The notes beneath the pieces are model-generated. The model did no database searches, was not told the DNA's origin, and saw only the letters and a program-made list of their open reading frames with translations. A stretch of 35,569 nucleotides of DNA from Oscillospiraceae bacterium (GTDB lineage Bacteria > Bacillota > Clostridia > Oscillospirales > Ruminococcaceae), in the NCBI GenBank assembly GCA_022508825.1, contig JAFLUI010000010.1, positions 1-35,569 on the forward strand, read 5' to 3'. The position numbers were made by a program, and so were the translations under genes. Every line of letters starts with the position of its first letter. Positions within the stretch are counted from its first letter, which is position 1. Below are positions 12,635-31,499 of the stretch, piece after piece.

Positions 12635-12669
12635 GAACGGCTGCGCGTAATACACAGCCGTTCTTATTT
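12635..12669 (+). terminator. Intrinsic terminator after the phosphoesterase unit
   Basis: Perfect 9-bp stem GAACGGCTG (12635-12643) and CAGCCGTTC (12655-12663) with an 11-nt loop, followed by the T-rich tract TTATTTT. Confidence 0.85.
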
Positions 12670-12691
12670 TATATTTTACAGCTTATCTCTG

Positions 12692-12753
12692 CTGCCCCCT
12701 TGATAGGGGGCTAAACAAAATAAACTGTTTGGTATTTTTAACGGTGGGGGTAG
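12692..12753. repeat. CCCCCTTGATAGGGGG-type palindromic repeat, copy 1
   Basis: A 62-bp unit that opens with CTGCCCCCTTGATAGGGGGC and closes with GGGGGTAG, so its ends are imperfect inverted repeats (CTGCCCCC and CTACCCCC). The middle holds AAACA/TGTTT, able to pair. Copy 2 lies at 23404-23467 with the same ends but a different paired middle. Both lie just past the stop codon of a minus-strand gene. Confidence 0.7.
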
Positions 12754-12768
12754 ATAATCGTCCAGGGC

Positions 12769-14133
12769 TCAGCCTTGGTCGGGGCAGCAGGCGAAGCCGC
12801 TGTCGATATAGTTTGCAATAAATCTTGCGTTGAAATTGCGCACTGCACATGGAGCGTCGTCCTCGGCAACACTCAGGCTTGCAGGAAGAACGAACTTGAT
12901 GCAGCGTACTGTTACGTCAGTGCAGAACTCCCTTGTGTGAGCAGGGATGACCATGGTCTTCATTCCGCGGTTGTACTCTATGCCCTCTGCGTCTGTCTCT
13001 GTGAGGATAGCGGCAAGAGCTACACGCTTGCCGGGACATACATTCTGGAGCGTAACGTCAAGGGATGCGATGGTGCCGGCAGTATCTATCACAAGATTTC
13101 CTGCGTCCAGTGTGACAACGTCCTCACAGCCGCTTACGCTGAGAGGGATAGGCTCGGGACAGCCCTCGGCAATGACCTCGGGGCAGTCCACAGAAAGTGT
13201 GGGAGAGGGGAAGTCTACAACGCTGCCCTCTGTGTCGGTGTATACTGTGGACTGGTTAGGCTCTACCGTTCCTGCGCAGGTGCCGAGATGCTCTACTGTA
13301 AATGTCAGTTCGACGCCTTCAATGGCATCATTGCCAAGATCTTCGATCGTCCATTGTACAGTGTTGTTGTCAATCAGACTTGCCTGACCCTGTGTCGGCA
13401 TGGATGTGCTTGTGATCCTGAAGCAGGGGGATACCGTATCGGTGATAGTAATATTTGTTGCACCGTCTCTTGCTATATTTTCGGTAAGAGTGCCGAAGAT
13501 GTCTGCGATCTGGGTTCCGTCGGGAGTAATATACGCAAAGGAAGCAGAAGGCGAGGAAGCCACGTCTTCAATAAGGCTCACATCGATACCGTCTCTGCCG
13601 TTCAGACCGATGACAAAGATAGTTATGCCGGATGCTTTTAACTGTGCAGCGATAGTTCTTGCATTTGCGCCGGTATTTGATAAGCCGTTTGTGAAAAGTA
13701 CGATGACCTTATTGTTTGAGGAGGACTGAAGAAGCTGTCCTGCTGCTGTAAGAGCAGCGGTAATGTTTGTATTTCCGTTTGCTGTCATATTATTTACAGC
13801 GCTCTTAAGCTCGCTTACATCGGTAATAAGCTGAGTGTCCGTTGTTGCTGTGGCAGCAAAGCTGACAACTGCCATGCGGTTTCCGTCGCCGATCTCACCG
13901 GACACCGTTCCGTCTGTAGCCTCTGCAATGATGTCGATAAGCTCGTTAGCTCCGTTTTTAACGTTTGTGAGAAAATCTCCCACCATGTCTCCGGAGCGGT
14001 CAAGCACCAGAACGATGTCAGCAGGATCCTCTGTTATATCAGGTCCTGCCACCAGGGACAGATTTATCTGGAAAGAGCCTTCACATTCAAGGCTCTCTGT
14101 ACTGAGAATTTTATTATAATTGATGATACCCAT
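12769..14133 (-). CDS. Cysteine-rich VWA-domain protein with altered MIDAS
   Basis: A 454-aa protein without a signal peptide or membrane helix. Residues about 35-215 are a von Willebrand A domain. The metal-site motif reads DRSGD (Asp45, Ser47, Asp49) where DxSxS is usual; Thr122 lies in NGNTNI, and the usual TDG is TNG (Asn149). Residues about 220-315 resemble a bacterial surface beta-sandwich (DUF11-like). The C-terminal third carries most of the twelve Cys, ending ACCPDQG. The ATG at 14133, with AAAGGAAT upstream, is preferred to an ATG at 14163 that overlaps no ribosome site. Proteins with a similar opening occur in other clostridia as far as I recall. Export route and ligand are unknown; a spore-surface or structural role is a guess. 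Confidence 0.75.
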   Translation of the reverse strand: MGIINYNKILSTESLECEGSFQINLSLVAGPDITEDPADIVLVLDRSGDMVGDFLTNVKNGANELIDIIAEATDGTVSGEIGDGNRMAVVSFAATATTDTQLITDVSELKSAVNNMTANGNTNITAALTAAGQLLQSSSNNKVIVLFTNGLSNTGANARTIAAQLKASGITIFVIGLNGRDGIDVSLIEDVASSPSASFAYITPDGTQIADIFGTLTENIARDGATNITITDTVSPCFRITSTSMPTQGQASLIDNNTVQWTIEDLGNDAIEGVELTFTVEHLGTCAGTVEPNQSTVYTDTEGSVVDFPSPTLSVDCPEVIAEGCPEPIPLSVSGCEDVVTLDAGNLVIDTAGTIASLDVTLQNVCPGKRVALAAILTETDAEGIEYNRGMKTMVIPAHTREFCTDVTVRCIKFVLPASLSVAEDDAPCAVRNFNARFIANYIDSGFACCPDQG

Positions 14134-14219
14134 TAAGATGATTCCTTTCTGAGCCGCATCCATGCGGGCTCAGTACATAATATGATGATGGGGCAGGGAG
14201 TGACACATTTTTTCGGGGA

Positions 14220-18792: not shown

Positions 18793-21708
18793 TTATTTTG
18801 ATGATTTGATACGCTTTCTTATTATTACCGCAAGCGCTCCGGCTATGGAGATCAGCAGGATCCCGATTCCCGCATAAGACAGACCGTCCATCAGAACGCT
18901 GTCCTCATAAAAACCTGCCCCGCTGGAAACGTCGTCATCATCTGCATCTGCAGAGGAGGTATCCTTTCCCGGAGAAACAAAAGGAAATGCACCTGGTCTC
19001 TGCCACGAACCGCTTGGCGGATACGGAGATCCCGACGGCTCCTGATCGACCGGAGGATCATTTTTTGGAGGATCATCGTCCTTTGGGGAATCATCCTTCT
19101 TGGGCGGGTCATCTTCTTTGGGAGGATCCTCGTTTTCGGGAGGCTCCTTGTCTTCCGTGTCATCAGGTGTCAGTTCTTCCTCGCTTCTGACTTCTTTTCC
19201 GAATATAGGACGTCCCAGCTTCTCGCTCATTATCCAGATATTATTGAAGTCCCAGCCGACTATGGTAAAGATCGATCTAGTGTTGAACTGCTCTTTATCT
19301 ATAGGGACAGCCCCGATGTCGGATTTATTATCACCGCCTACTCCGAAGTCTGCTGTATCATCAAGATAGAAGCAATTCTCTATTTTTCCGGGGATCTTTC
19401 CGCTGAAAAGGAATCCCACAACACCGCAGACATCACTGTCGCCGGTGACCTTACCGACGCTGTAAGCATTTCTTACTGTTCCTGCAGTGGAATCGGCCGC
19501 ACTGTTATATCCTACAACACCGCCCACATATTTTCCAGATTCAATATCACCTGTGTTATAGCAGTTTTCTACCATGCCTCCGTTGTCACCTGCAATACCT
19601 CCTGCAGAACCCCAGGTACCTTTGATATCCCCCGTACTGAAGCATATCCTTACCGTTCCGGGATTATTTCCGACGATACCTCCGATTCTGTCTCTGCCTG
19701 AAACATTACAGCCGTAGTTATAGCAATATTCTATCGTACCATCGACGCCATTATACCCTGCAATGCCTCCGATGTCATCAGCCTTATCAAGAAGATCGAT
19801 ACTTCCGTCCACAACACCCAGGTATCTGATGGTGCCGTTATTATATCCGAACAAGCCGTATCCGTTATTGCCGCTGTCTTTGGAGGTGATACTCATACCG
19901 CTTATCACTTTTTTGTTTCCGTCAAATGTTCCTGCAAAAGGCTTGCATTTCAGGGGATCCTCTTTTACATAGACACCTATGGGTGTCCAGTTTCTGACAC
20001 TGCTCATGTCAATATCATTTTCCAGTCTGAAATGCTTATCATATCCGGTATATCCTTCATTGACATGATCGCGGAGCTTCTTCAGCTCGTCAAGACCGTA
20101 GATGCGGTACGGGGCTTTTTCCGTGCCCGCACCGTCAAATTCTGACCATACAGGCTCAATAGGCATGATATTATTTTCAGTTGAATCAACAAATACCGGG
20201 CGGATCAGACCGCTTTTGGTGTCCTTGACGATCACCCATACACCGCCGTCGGAAGCCCAGTCTTTAAATGTATCTTCGTTTTCAAGATCGGCTCCGGATA
20301 ATGCTTTTGCGCCGTCAGTATCCGCGCTGCCAATTCCGCCTGCCGCTGTGTCTGAGAGATACCAGCAGTTTGTGACTGCGCCGGTGCCGGTGACACTTCC
20401 TGCAACACCTCCGCCGGTGGTGACAGTACCGATATTATAACAATATACCACCTTGCCGGAAACGCTTCCTGCAACTCCGCCAACATTGCCCGTGCCTCTG
20501 ACAGCGCCGAGGTTATAGCAGTTTTCTGTTGTGTTGCTGTTTTCCGACCCGACAACACCGCCTACATTTGTGTCCCCGGTGACATTGCCTTCGTTATAGC
20601 AGATATGTGTTTTGCCGTTGTTATCGCCTGTAATTCCGCCTACATTGCTTGTTCCCGAAACTTCGCCTGAGTTATAGCTTTTTTCTATCGTACTGCTGCT
20701 GCTTCCTGCAATGCCTCCCGAATTGGAGCCGCCGCCAATATTTCCTGTGTTATGACAGCCTGTGACTGTGCCCGAATTATCACCTGCAATACCGCCTGAG
20801 CCGACAGTACCGGAAACGCTTCCGGAGTTAGTACAGTCTATGACTGATGAGGCGTTGTATCCCACAATGCCGCCGATACATGATGCGGAGTCCTTTCCAA
20901 TGTTCCCGGAGTTCTCGCAGTATCTGACCGTTCCGGCATTGTATCCCACGATACCGCCGATATTTTGGTCACTGCCCTGGACATTGACGCCTCCACCGAC
21001 GGTGCAGTTTTCGATAGTACCGCCGTCATTATATCCCGCGATCACGCCTGTATTGTTCTTGCCGCCAACGTAGCCGAATGGTATATCAATGTTTTTGACA
21101 GTACCGCCTTTGACATATCCGAACAAACCATAGGAATATTCACTGAGCTTGGAAGTATTATCGACGTTCAGTCCTTTTATCGCATAATTGCCTTTATCAT
21201 CAGCTCTTTTGCCGTCAAGTGTGCCGGAAAATGGCGTATCATTGCGGCTGTTATCATTATAATAAGCTCCTATGGGCGTCCATTTGCCTTCAAGCTTTGA
21301 CAGGTCAATATCTGCCGTCAGATCAAAAAACATACCATTGTAATCATTGCCGCCGTTGACAGCATCTGCAAGAGCTTTAAGCTCTGCAGCGGATGAGATC
21401 AGATAGGGTGTTTCTACCGAACCATCGCCGCCGCTGAACACAGGATCGTTATTGCCGCCGTTATCCCCGCCATCGCCTTCGTTTTCGCCGGTGTCCCCGT
21501 TATTACCTGTGCCGCCGCCGCTCTCGTTCTCATTCGTGCCGTCCCCGCTGTTCTCGTCTGCATTGCCGGCTTCGTCCGCGGCGGCTGCCCCGTCCACGAC
21601 CTCATCTGCAGAGACGCCGGGACCTTCTTCCGCCATTGCAGAAAACGGCATCGAAGACAGCATCACTGCCGCAGCAATGACAGCGGCTATGTATTTTAAC
21701 GTTTTCAT
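18793..21708 (-). CDS. Large GLUG-repeat surface protein with C-terminal membrane anchor
   Basis: A 971-aa secreted protein. Residues 1-26 are a signal peptide (cleavage after SAMA). An acidic Gly/Asn/Glu-rich linker spans about 27-92. Two GLUG beta-helix blocks follow: about 100-460 with eight repeats and about 520-840 with four, built on GGIVGYNxGTV-type units of about 23 residues. A Pro/Asp/Lys-rich stalk and one transmembrane helix (GIGILLISIAGALAVII) with a basic tail end the protein. There is no LPxTG motif, so it is probably held by the helix itself. The ATG at 21708 has GGGGGA upstream; an open extension to 21807 is rejected. GLUG proteins often act in adhesion, but the ligand is unknown. 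The repeats could recombine and change length. Confidence 0.88.
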   Translation of the reverse strand: MKTLKYIAAVIAAAVMLSSMPFSAMAEEGPGVSADEVVDGAAAADEAGNADENSGDGTNENESGGGTGNNGDTGENEGDGGDNGGNNDPVFSGGDGSVETPYLISSAAELKALADAVNGGNDYNGMFFDLTADIDLSKLEGKWTPIGAYYNDNSRNDTPFSGTLDGKRADDKGNYAIKGLNVDNTSKLSEYSYGLFGYVKGGTVKNIDIPFGYVGGKNNTGVIAGYNDGGTIENCTVGGGVNVQGSDQNIGGIVGYNAGTVRYCENSGNIGKDSASCIGGIVGYNASSVIDCTNSGSVSGTVGSGGIAGDNSGTVTGCHNTGNIGGGSNSGGIAGSSSSTIEKSYNSGEVSGTSNVGGITGDNNGKTHICYNEGNVTGDTNVGGVVGSENSNTTENCYNLGAVRGTGNVGGVAGSVSGKVVYCYNIGTVTTGGGVAGSVTGTGAVTNCWYLSDTAAGGIGSADTDGAKALSGADLENEDTFKDWASDGGVWVIVKDTKSGLIRPVFVDSTENNIMPIEPVWSEFDGAGTEKAPYRIYGLDELKKLRDHVNEGYTGYDKHFRLENDIDMSSVRNWTPIGVYVKEDPLKCKPFAGTFDGNKKVISGMSITSKDSGNNGYGLFGYNNGTIRYLGVVDGSIDLLDKADDIGGIAGYNGVDGTIEYCYNYGCNVSGRDRIGGIVGNNPGTVRICFSTGDIKGTWGSAGGIAGDNGGMVENCYNTGDIESGKYVGGVVGYNSAADSTAGTVRNAYSVGKVTGDSDVCGVVGFLFSGKIPGKIENCFYLDDTADFGVGGDNKSDIGAVPIDKEQFNTRSIFTIVGWDFNNIWIMSEKLGRPIFGKEVRSEEELTPDDTEDKEPPENEDPPKEDDPPKKDDSPKDDDPPKNDPPVDQEPSGSPYPPSGSWQRPGAFPFVSPGKDTSSADADDDDVSSGAGFYEDSVLMDGLSYAGIGILLISIAGALAVIIRKRIKSSK

Positions 21709-21760
21709 ATACGATCCCCCCGATAAATTTTTGCGTAAAAATATTATGCTGATTACTGAT

Positions 21761-21789
21761 ATAATAGCACGATTTGAGGATTTTGTCAA
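21761..21789 (-). promoter_or_regulatory. SigA promoter of the GLUG-repeat gene
   Basis: On the minus strand TTGACA (21784-21789), 17-nt spacer, TATTAT (21761-21766), about 50 bp before the ATG. Confidence 0.85.
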
Positions 21790-21821
21790 TATTTTGCGCG
21801 GATACAAAGGAAAAAACGGTA

Positions 21822-23362: not shown

Positions 23363-23394
23363 AAAGGGAGTACCAAAAGGCACTCCCTTTTTTG
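23363..23394 (+). terminator. Intrinsic terminator of the lipoprotein gene
   Basis: Stem AAAGGGAGT (23363-23371) with ACTCCCTTT (23382-23390), then a T-run to 23393. Confidence 0.85.
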
Positions 23395-23403
23395 CATTCT
23401 ATA

Positions 23404-23467
23404 CTGCCCCCTTGATAGGGGGCTTGGATGTAATAAATTATTCGCTGTTATTAACATTTGGGGGTAG
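23404..23467. repeat. CCCCCTTGATAGGGGG-type palindromic repeat, copy 2
   Basis: A 64-bp unit with the same CTGCCCCCTTGATAGGGGGC opening and GGGGGTAG closing as copy 1 (12692-12753). The middle differs, but TAATAA/TTATTA can pair where copy 1 has AAACA/TGTTT. It lies 24 bp past the mgsA stop. A GC-rich hairpin (about 23477-23490) follows it, as a hairpin follows copy 1. Confidence 0.7.
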
Positions 23468-23491
23468 AAAAAGCCCGCGGGGGCTCCCCGC

Positions 23492-23893
23492 TCATGCAGG
23501 ATTAACAAGCTGACGCCAGTCAAGGTCGCCCCTTTCAAGAGCGTGTATCAAAGCTTCCGCTGTGGCAATATTAGTCGCCACCGGAATGTTGTGTACATCA
23601 CAAAGTCTGAGAAGATCCCTCTCGTTAGGCTCATGAGGCTGTGCTGTAAGAGGGTCTCTGAAAAAGAGAAGAAGGTCGATTTCGTTGCAGGATATACGCG
23701 CACTGATCTGCTGGTCTCCGCCCTGGGAGCCGCTTAAATACCGCTGGATATTCAGTCCTGTTGCCTGCTCTACCATCTTGCCGGTAGTTCCTGTTGCGCA
23801 CAGGTTGTTCCGGGACAATACTCCGCAGTATGCAATACAGAACTGGACCATAAGCTCTTTTTTGGTATCATGCGCAATTAAAGCTATATTCAT
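23492..23893 (-). CDS. mgsA: Methylglyoxal synthase
   Basis: A 133-aa enzyme converting dihydroxyacetone phosphate to methylglyoxal and phosphate, a bypass of lower glycolysis. Catalytic and phosphate-binding elements known from the E. coli enzyme are present: His8 (IAHD), the ATGTTG phosphate loop, Asp60 (GGDQQI), Asp80 (FFRDPL) and His87 (PHEPN, where E. coli has HDPD). The ATG at 23893 is preferred to one at 23902, which lies directly on the GAGAGGA ribosome site. It lies 52 bp after minD, the usual last place in the Firmicute shape/division cluster. Confidence 0.95.
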
Positions 23894-26975: not shown

Positions 26976-27130
26976 ATGCTCCCGCAGGGAGCATCTCTCC
27001 TTTCACGTACGTTTATGCCGAATAAATTCGCCTTGCGGTTTTGCTCAGCAAAATTTCAGAACTCAATTTATTGAGTATGCAGTCATGAAAAGCACAAAAC
27101 TCGAAGTTTGAAAATCTTTGATTTTCAAAC
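26976..27130. repeat. Composite palindromic element, copy A
   Basis: Four inverted repeats in a row: ATGCTCCC/GGGAGCAT (26976-26994), TTTTGC/GCAAAA (27039-27053), ACTCAA/TTGAGT (27061-27076), and an 11-bp perfect pair GTTTGAAAATC/GATTTTCAAAC (27106-27130). The last two modules are joined by CAAAACTCGAAG, also seen in copy B (31281-31404). It fills the leader between mreD and mrdA. Confidence 0.65.
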
Positions 27131-27142
27131 ATAGCCTCCTGT

Positions 27143-31280: not shown

Positions 31281-31404
31281 CATTTTCCCGACAGGGAAAA
31301 TGTGTCCTCCTATTTTTCGATGTTTTGTGCTTTTGCGTAAGCAAAATTACGAGCGGCAGCGAGGAAAACAAAACTCGCAGTTTGAAAATCTCAGATTTTC
31401 AAAC
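31281..31404. repeat. Composite palindromic element, copy B
   Basis: Inverted repeats in order: CATTTTCCC/GGGAAAATG (31281-31302), TTTTGC/GCAAAA (31331-31346) and GTTTGAAAATC/GATTTTCAAAC (31380-31404). The last pair is identical to copy A and is preceded by CAAAACTCGCAG, one base different from copy A. It lies in the leader of the histidine-kinase gene; the rest of the 345-bp gap to the HD-GYP gene holds only that gene's promoter and leader. Confidence 0.65.
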
Positions 31405-31499
31405 ATTCATACATATTATTATTTTATCATATTTCCTATGTAAATTCATGAACTTTTAGTTAATAGCGCTGTCCGAAACAAAATTTTAAGGATATATAC

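What the first reader, a model, noticed from the sequence alone, without database searches (positions are those of the whole stretch)
12692..12753. Two-copy palindromic repeat with conserved ends and exchanged middle pairing
The copies at 12692-12753 and 23404-23467 share CTGCCCCCTTGATAGGGGGC and GGGGGTAG ends, while their middles differ but each can pair within itself. Both lie 15-25 bp past the stop of a minus-strand gene and are followed by another hairpin. Preserved structure with changed sequence suggests selection on an RNA or DNA fold. I recall similar CCCCCTTGATAGGGGG repeats in Ruminococcaceae, from memory only.
Basis: partly seen in the sequence, partly recalled or inferred. Interest (0 to 1): 0.55.

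Follow-up and report, generated by a model that had tools for sequence, protein, structure and literature searches.

The report
Modular hairpin repeats at gene ends
The two palindromes are copies of a roughly 95-base, multi-hairpin repeat scattered dozens of times through this bacterium's genome, mostly just after genes; it appears to be a mobile piece of non-coding DNA whose two separated recognition motifs change together.

Summary
The two window copies belong to a dispersed repeat: 43 exact hairpin cores and 85 model matches in this 2.88-Mb genome. It occurs in 15 of 21 genomes of the genus, with no convincing member elsewhere in the family. Each copy has an invariant GC hairpin (H1), a length-conserved spacer, GGGGGTAGA (tail), sometimes extra hairpins, and a terminal hairpin (H5) at or inside the stop of the opposing gene. 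A gene 3' end lies within 30 nt of H5 in 26 of 39 copies, against 11 of 38 on the left and about 14% of random intergenic points. Six of nine readable orthologous sites in a sister species are empty, so it is an insertion. H5 classes are swapped between copies and shared with a second repeat family. A stronger coupling was missed: H1 loop and tail change together (TTGATA/TAGA, TTGA/TGA, TGGACA/TCGA), in 26 of 27 similar-spacer pairs with different loops. Best reading: a BOX/REP-like, modular, non-autonomous mobile repeat with an unknown mobiliser; Y1 transposases are missing from all six genomes with 40 or more matches.

The parts
12685..12693 (+). copy 1, left flank (weakly conserved, consensus ACTAAaC[CT])
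   Evidence: column information about 0.5-0.8 bit at -11 to -2 before the core over 43 copies, background further left
12694..12711 (+). copy 1, H1 hairpin GCCCCC-TTGATA-GGGGGC
   Evidence: 43 exact cores in the genome; compensatory changes in relatives
12712..12745 (+). copy 1, variable spacer, length-conserved (33-37 nt by the definition); can form a 5-bp AT hairpin
   Evidence: pairing not better than base shuffles over the 43 copies of this genome
12746..12754 (+). copy 1, G-run and tail GGGGGTAGA; the tail type is coupled to the H1 loop type
12762..12778 (+). copy 1, H5 terminal hairpin CCAGGGC-TCA-GCCTTGG (class B-like); contains the stop codon of the minus-strand VWA-domain gene
   Evidence: element not seen in the 300 nt behind the orthologous gene in G002 and four other genus genomes (a sixth, G008, could not be judged because its gene is broken)
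12769..14163 (-). neighbouring gene, VWA-domain protein, whose last codons and stop come from H5
   Evidence: Pfam PF00092, E 4.3e-22; orthologue in G002 at 72% identity has a different C-terminus and stop
12635..12663 (.). terminator-like hairpin between copy 1 and the left (+) gene; reported on the minus strand, so copy 1 sits between the minus gene and its probable terminator
23397..23405 (+). copy 2, left flank
23406..23423 (+). copy 2, H1 hairpin GCCCCC-TTGATA-GGGGGC
23424..23459 (+). copy 2, variable spacer
23460..23468 (+). copy 2, G-run and tail GGGGGTAGA
23477..23491 (+). copy 2, H5 terminal hairpin GCGGGG-GCT-CCCCGC (class C); abuts the stop codon of the minus-strand gene at 23492-23494
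23363..23390 (.). terminator-like hairpin between copy 2 and the left (+) gene, reported on the minus strand

Best explanation
The finding is two copies of a genus-restricted, modular, non-coding interspersed repeat of about 95 nt (longer with extra hairpins), comparable in kind to BOX elements and REP/BIMEs. SHOWN: it is dispersed in tens of copies. It is absent from six of nine readable orthologous sites in a sister species, so it is gained or lost as a unit. It has a fixed order (left flank, H1, spacer, G-run plus tail, optional hairpins, H5). H5 is exchanged freely between copies and is shared with another repeat family. H1 and H5 are kept as hairpins. The H1 loop and the tail change together. 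The H5 end lies at gene 3' ends, often supplying the stop codon. INFERRED: it is a non-autonomous mobile element handled in trans by an enzyme that reads the folded single strand (H1 loop plus tail as one recognition unit, H5 as the far end), landing at or surviving best at gene 3' ends, where it becomes a 3'-UTR hairpin cluster. Any benefit to the host (mRNA protection, separation of convergent transcripts) is secondary and not shown.
For: Copy number: 43 exact cores with control 0; 85 matches at E<=0.01 (which scored only the best 150 candidates per genome). Mobility: empty orthologous sites in G002 at L001, L014 and L041, L004, L026 and L120. Homology resumes at the H5 end in L041 and L014, and at L120 the insertion falls at the stop codon (AAGTAAGCACC in G002, AAATAGCAAGG in G000). 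Orthologous sites filled in both species carry different modules: H5 class differs at L007 and L020, loop/tail subtype differs at L024. Tandem copies occur at L122 and L105. Modularity: loop type is independent of H5 class in G000 (mutual information 0.118, shuffles 0.158); H5 also closes a second family in G002; the hairpin of the extra module also occurs in other contexts. Coupling: TTGATA-TAGA 62 of 64, TTGA-TGA 31 of 34, TTGCTA-TAGA 6 of 6, TGGACA-TCGA 4 of 4 among 114 copies read; mutual information 0.865 against 0.115 in G000; among similar-spacer pairs, loop differs and tail differs 26 of 27, loop same and tail same 167 of 177. Position: right 3' end within 30 nt 26 of 39, left 11 of 38, random 14%. 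Covariation of H1 and H5.
Against: No mobiliser was found: Y1_Tnp (PF01797) occurs in only 4 of 21 genus genomes and in none of the six genomes with 40 or more matches (three of these six are incomplete: G012 and G007 78%, G008 89%). Rep_1 and Y2_Tnp gave nothing, but their control genomes were silent too. No replication-strand bias was seen (11 of 19 in G002 and the window; 17 of 43 by local skew in G000). No target motif is evident at H5 beyond T in 46 of 84 at the first base, and a stop codon exactly at the H5 end occurs in only 8 of 84. Movement was never observed; recombination or gene conversion could explain part of the swapping. The empty sites rest on one sister species, so loss in that species is not excluded site by site.
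Confidence: 0.68

Rival explanations
1. A host-serving structured RNA: the element is kept at gene 3' ends because, transcribed from the minus-strand gene, H5 and H1 act as 3'-UTR hairpins that block exonucleases or separate convergent transcripts.
For: H5 lies at or in the stop region in 26 of 39 copies, and 14 of 34 copies with both neighbours called lie between convergent genes; H1 and H5 pairings are conserved; both window copies are predicted fairly stable in the minus-strand RNA (z -2.15 and -1.99).
Against: In the window the minus genes already have a terminator-like hairpin beyond the element; orthologous genes lack the element in the sister species; most copies have no T-run after either hairpin; 11 of 39 copies have a gene 5' end on the H5 side instead.
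Confidence: 0.17
2. A fast-evolving relic or recombination substrate: hairpins and modules spread by slippage, cruciform-induced recombination and gene conversion, with no transposase and no present mobility.
For: Free exchange of H5 classes, including between orthologous sites; hairpin modules shared by otherwise unrelated repeats; no transposase family found.
Against: Empty sites with homology resuming at the H5 end (L041, L014); fixed module order; coupled loop and tail with the spacer kept between them, which simple conversion of one end would break.
Confidence: 0.15

Closest known systems
BOX elements of Streptococcus pneumoniae (PMC3049150, passages read)
   Same: Composite of modules in fixed order with variable inner parts, stem-loop forming, intergenic; the authors regard the pneumococcal repeats as parasitic
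   Different: Different sequence and modules; BOX is described with terminal inverted repeats resembling an IS, whereas here the two ends (H1, H5) are unrelated to each other and no matching IS was found; no loop-tail coupling in the passages read
REP / BIME families tagged GTAG or CGTC (PMC3733652, abstract, background, start of results and passages read; PMC2817692, passages)
   Same: Short GC hairpins in high copy, predominantly downstream of genes and between convergent or unidirectional ORFs; one class (CGTC) also lacks a dedicated transposase
   Different: REPs are 20-40 bp single palindromes with a near-fixed tag; here the element has several different hairpins, the bases after the G-run vary (TAGA, TGA, TCGA) with the H1 loop, and no Y1 (RAYT) gene is found in any of the six genomes with 40 or more matches
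IS200/IS605 ends read by TnpA (IS608; PMC5934647, start of abstract seen in the search listing; details of guide and cleavage motifs recalled)
   Same: Works-like comparison only: hairpin ends plus short motifs that must match each other
   Different: No TnpA gene in the copy-rich genomes; the coupled motifs do not pair simply; one sits in a hairpin loop
Rolling-circle double-strand origins of the Rep_1 kind (nick site CTTGATA, PMC10378824, passages read)
   Same: H1 shows C-TTGATA in the loop of a GC hairpin
   Different: No Rep_1 gene in 21 genomes (control silent); about a third of the copies read carry CTTGA without TA (34 TTGA of 114)

Membership tests
REP (GTAG-tagged, RAYT-associated) | fixed GTAG tag next to the palindrome | tested here: not met
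   tail is TAGA, TGA or TCGA depending on the loop; GTAG appears only in one subtype
REP (GTAG-tagged, RAYT-associated) | Y1 transposase (RAYT) in the genome | tested here: not met
   PF01797: 0 in G000; 4 of 21 in the genus, none of the six genomes with 40 or more matches
REP (GTAG-tagged, RAYT-associated) | high copy number, extragenic, mostly downstream of genes | tested here: met
BOX-like modular interspersed repeat (as a kind) | several hairpin modules in fixed order, some optional or exchangeable | tested here: met
BOX-like modular interspersed repeat (as a kind) | presence/absence at orthologous sites | tested here: met
   six empty, three filled of nine readable sites against G002
MITE of a DDE transposon | terminal inverted repeats | tested here: not met
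   left (flank, H1) and right (H5) ends are unrelated sequences
MITE of a DDE transposon | target-site duplication | tested here: inconclusive
   none noticed when reading flanks; not tested statistically
IS200/IS605-derived element | mobilised by a Y1 TnpA present in the genome | tested here: not met
   several of the genomes are incomplete
Rfam RNA family | match at gathering score | tested here: not met
   0 in the window; only matches far below the gathering scores for six loci
Intrinsic terminator | stem followed directly by a T-run | tested here: not met
   H1 not reported on either strand at the two window copies; H5 of copy 2 only is reported, with the T-run starting after GGGC

The most novel reading that the evidence does not exclude
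A new class of non-autonomous single-strand mobile element in Firmicutes: the H1 loop (CTTG-ATA) and the tail some 40 bases downstream form one two-part recognition site, analogous to the cleavage and guide motifs of IS608 but read by an enzyme that is neither Y1 TnpA nor Rep_1, with interchangeable terminal hairpins (H5) as the other end and gene 3' ends as landing sites.
Probability: 0.15. Interest if true: 0.8.

Novelty: new variant of a known kind. Interest (0 to 1): 0.47.

Why it matters
Small palindromic repeats are best described in Proteobacteria and streptococci. This is a well-bounded family in one clostridial genus with three features that make the mechanism testable: interchangeable end modules, two separated motifs that change together, and an end that marks gene 3' termini. 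The motif coupling predicts which variants should be processed together by an unknown enzyme. For annotators, many genes in this genus (including the window's VWA-domain gene) end inside repeat sequence, so their last residues are repeat-derived.

Tried and rejected
Riboswitch or known RNA family: rejected, no Rfam match. Conserved middle hairpin: no consensus pair; not above base shuffles in the own genome (146 of 200 as good), in G012 (76 of 200) or in G002 (124 of 200); small excess after re-pairing within genomes (7 of 500). Outer pairing of the left flank with the tail: no association between tail type and any of ten left-flank columns. Y1, Rep_1 and Y2 enzymes as mobiliser: not found (the last two without a ringing control). 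Phage or plasmid carriage: no match in IMG/VR for two subtypes nor in plasmids. Replication-strand bias: none. Stop codon as exact target: 8 of 84, not convincing. Simple Watson-Crick explanation of loop-tail coupling: tried by hand, no antiparallel pairing fits all subtypes. Equal length of the three G/C runs: looked suggestive by eye, but the counts are mixed (C-run 5 with tail run 5 in 87 of 114; C-run 4 with tail run 4 in 7 and with 5 in 8), so it is not claimed. Print: no paper in the held library contains the four core strings (two subtypes, both orientations); searches listed no description of such a repeat in Ruminococcaceae or Clostridia. Rows left out of counts: 7 D-class copies of 43 were left out of the model alignment, and most D-class tails were not matched by the regular expression behind; 4 and 5 of 43 copies lacked enough flank or an ORF for the right and left counts; the H5 classifier left 10 of 114 unclassified. 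The similar-spacer comparison counts pairs, not independent events, and no phylogenetic correction was made.

Full report
Observation. GCCCCCTTGATAGGGGGC occurs twice in the window even with three mismatches allowed, against 0.01 expected. The minus-strand stop codons are 15 and 24 nt beyond the copies, and the second hairpin is there in both.

Copy number and anatomy. The genome in which the window lies (G000, 2.88 Mb, 212 contigs) has 43 exact copies of CCCCCTTGATAGGGGG and none of the reversed control. Read in full, each has a weakly conserved left flank (ACTAAaC[CT]), the hairpin H1, a spacer of nearly constant length, a G-run followed by TAGA, and a terminal hairpin H5. H5 comes in three main classes (for example GTCAAGGCTCAGCCTTG, GTGCAGGGCGCCGCCTTGC, CCCGCGGGGGCTCCCCGC). 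Seven of the 43 copies have additional hairpins between tail and H5. Information content falls to background about 11 bases left of the core and beyond H5.

Distribution. A covariance model (R1) built from 36 of the 43 copies finds 85 matches in G000 and matches in 15 of 21 genus genomes at E<=0.01: G012 88, G008 52, G013 45, G002 42, G007 40, G015 36, G020 29, and fewer in seven others; none in G001, G003, G004, G006, G011 and G017 (best 150 candidates per genome scored). Among 119 genomes spread over the family only G000 and two others had a match (stricter filters); I read both others and neither is a member (one is a plain terminator). The exact pattern occurs in 4 of 61 relatives, all of the same genus. 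Named carriers are Oscillospiraceae bacterium HAN076, Ruminococcus sp. Mgla_MAG_15 and an uncultured Clostridia bin (records near the window's own genome may be left out there). The repeat is therefore genus-restricted in what I searched.

Mobility. Against 0.97 Mb of the sister species G002, six sites filled in G000 are empty in G002 (L001; L014 and L041; L004, L026 and L120) and three are filled in both (L007, L020, L024). L018, L019 and L038 could not be read cleanly and L029 was cut from the output. At L041 and L014 the homologous flank resumes at the H5 end. At L120 the insertion falls at the stop codon. At L004 it lies just before the stop and the gene now reads through the element. At L026 and L001 it replaces the last codons. 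The three sites filled in both species differ in H5 class (L007, L020) or in loop and tail together (L024: TTGATA/TAGA in G000, TGGACG/TCGA in G002).

Position. With a simple ORF caller, the H5 side has a gene 3' end within 30 nt (overlap included) in 26 of 39 copies; the left side in 11 of 38; random intergenic points in the same loci 14%. Stops most often fall inside H5. A stop codon exactly at the H5 end is not special (8 of 84). In the window both minus-strand genes have a terminator-like hairpin beyond the element, which fits insertion between the stop and an older terminator rather than a new terminator.

Structure. H1 and H5 are conserved as hairpins with changes on both sides. H1 is invariant in the 43 copies because they were found by its exact core; variants appear with the model. 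The middle has no consensus pairing. In G000 the spacers fold no better than base shuffles (146 of 200 sets as good) and slightly better than re-paired halves (16 of 500). G012 and G002 show nothing, and a mixed set of 25 spacers from the remaining genomes does better (3 of 400), but that control mixes species. Re-pairing strictly within genomes gives 7 of 500 over 96 spacers. So there is a small excess of self-pairing, visible in some copies only, and no general compensatory exchange.

Loop-tail coupling. In 114 copies that could be parsed, loop TTGATA goes with TAGA (62 of 64), TTGA with TGA (31 of 34), TTGCTA with TAGA (6 of 6), TGGACA with TCGA (4 of 4). Within G000 the mutual information is 0.865 bits (shuffles 0.115), whereas loop and H5 class are unrelated (0.118, shuffles 0.158); over all genomes and over those other than G000 and G002 a weaker loop-H5 association exists (0.253 and 0.480), as expected if species differ in both. 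Among G000 and G002 copies with similar spacers, those that differ in the loop also differ in the tail in 26 of 27 pairs, and those with the same loop share the tail in 167 of 177. For example L121 and L011 have almost the same spacer but TTGA/TGA and TTGATA/TAGA. The two motifs are separated by the G-strand of H1 and the spacer. Left-flank columns show no association with the tail. I could not find a base-pairing scheme that explains all subtypes; recognition of both motifs by one protein or a non-canonical contact are open. The loop motif C-TTGATA equals the nick site of Rep_1-type rolling-circle origins (PMC10378824, passages), but no Rep_1 gene was found (control silent), so this is a lead only.

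Shared modules. In G002 the H5 hairpins also close another repeat (CCGTGTCGTATTTTACT...GTATGCAACG...H5). In G000 the hairpin of the long copies (17 places) also occurs in other contexts (many of those contigs end at the hairpin, so some upstream parts are unseen). The genus thus has a set of exchangeable hairpin modules.

Comparison with what is known. In kind this is a modular interspersed repeat like BOX (PMC3049150, passages) and like REP/BIMEs in its position downstream of genes (PMC3733652, abstract, background, start of results and passages). It fails two tested REP criteria: a fixed tag, and a RAYT. It fails the terminal-inverted-repeat criterion of DDE-type MITEs. No described family with these strings was found.

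Verdict. It is most likely a non-autonomous mobile repeat with conserved outer hairpins, exchangeable terminal hairpin and a coupled loop-tail recognition unit; the mobiliser and any host function remain unknown.

Noticed in passing
window 27094-27132 and 31368-31406: A second repeat in the window: ACAAAACTCG[AC]AGTTTGAAAATC...GATTTTCAAACAT, 92% identical, next to GCAAAA-type hairpins; its CAAAACTCG part resembles the extra hairpin module of the long copies.
   Followed up: partly
L161, L173, L174, L178, L192, L202, L204, L210 and others (G002): A separate repeat family with CCGTGTCGTATTTTACT...GTATGCAACG as its left part that ends in the same H5 hairpins as the family studied here.
   Followed up: partly
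L239, L240, L252, L253 (G000): The hairpin GAGTTTTGCTGCGCAAAACATCG occurs in other composite repeats (e.g. behind ACGAACGCAAGCGTTCGTTTGC) and several contigs of the assembly end at it.
   Followed up: no
L007 and G002 L162: One copy sits beside a stretch rich in TTTTCCACA/TGTGGAAAA, possibly an origin region, and is filled in both species with different subtypes.
   Followed up: no
L091, L104, L148, L150 (G013), L111, L098 (G019): In these species the element is embedded in a longer repeat with shared outer flanks (aaaggcttaac..cca on the left, aaattatcattta on the right in most) and a spacer such as GTTTAAAC-n-GTTTAAAC.
   Followed up: no
window 18793-21807: A long minus-strand ORF (1004 aa) with many imperfect repeats about 78-84 nt apart, apparently a repetitive protein.
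   Followed up: no
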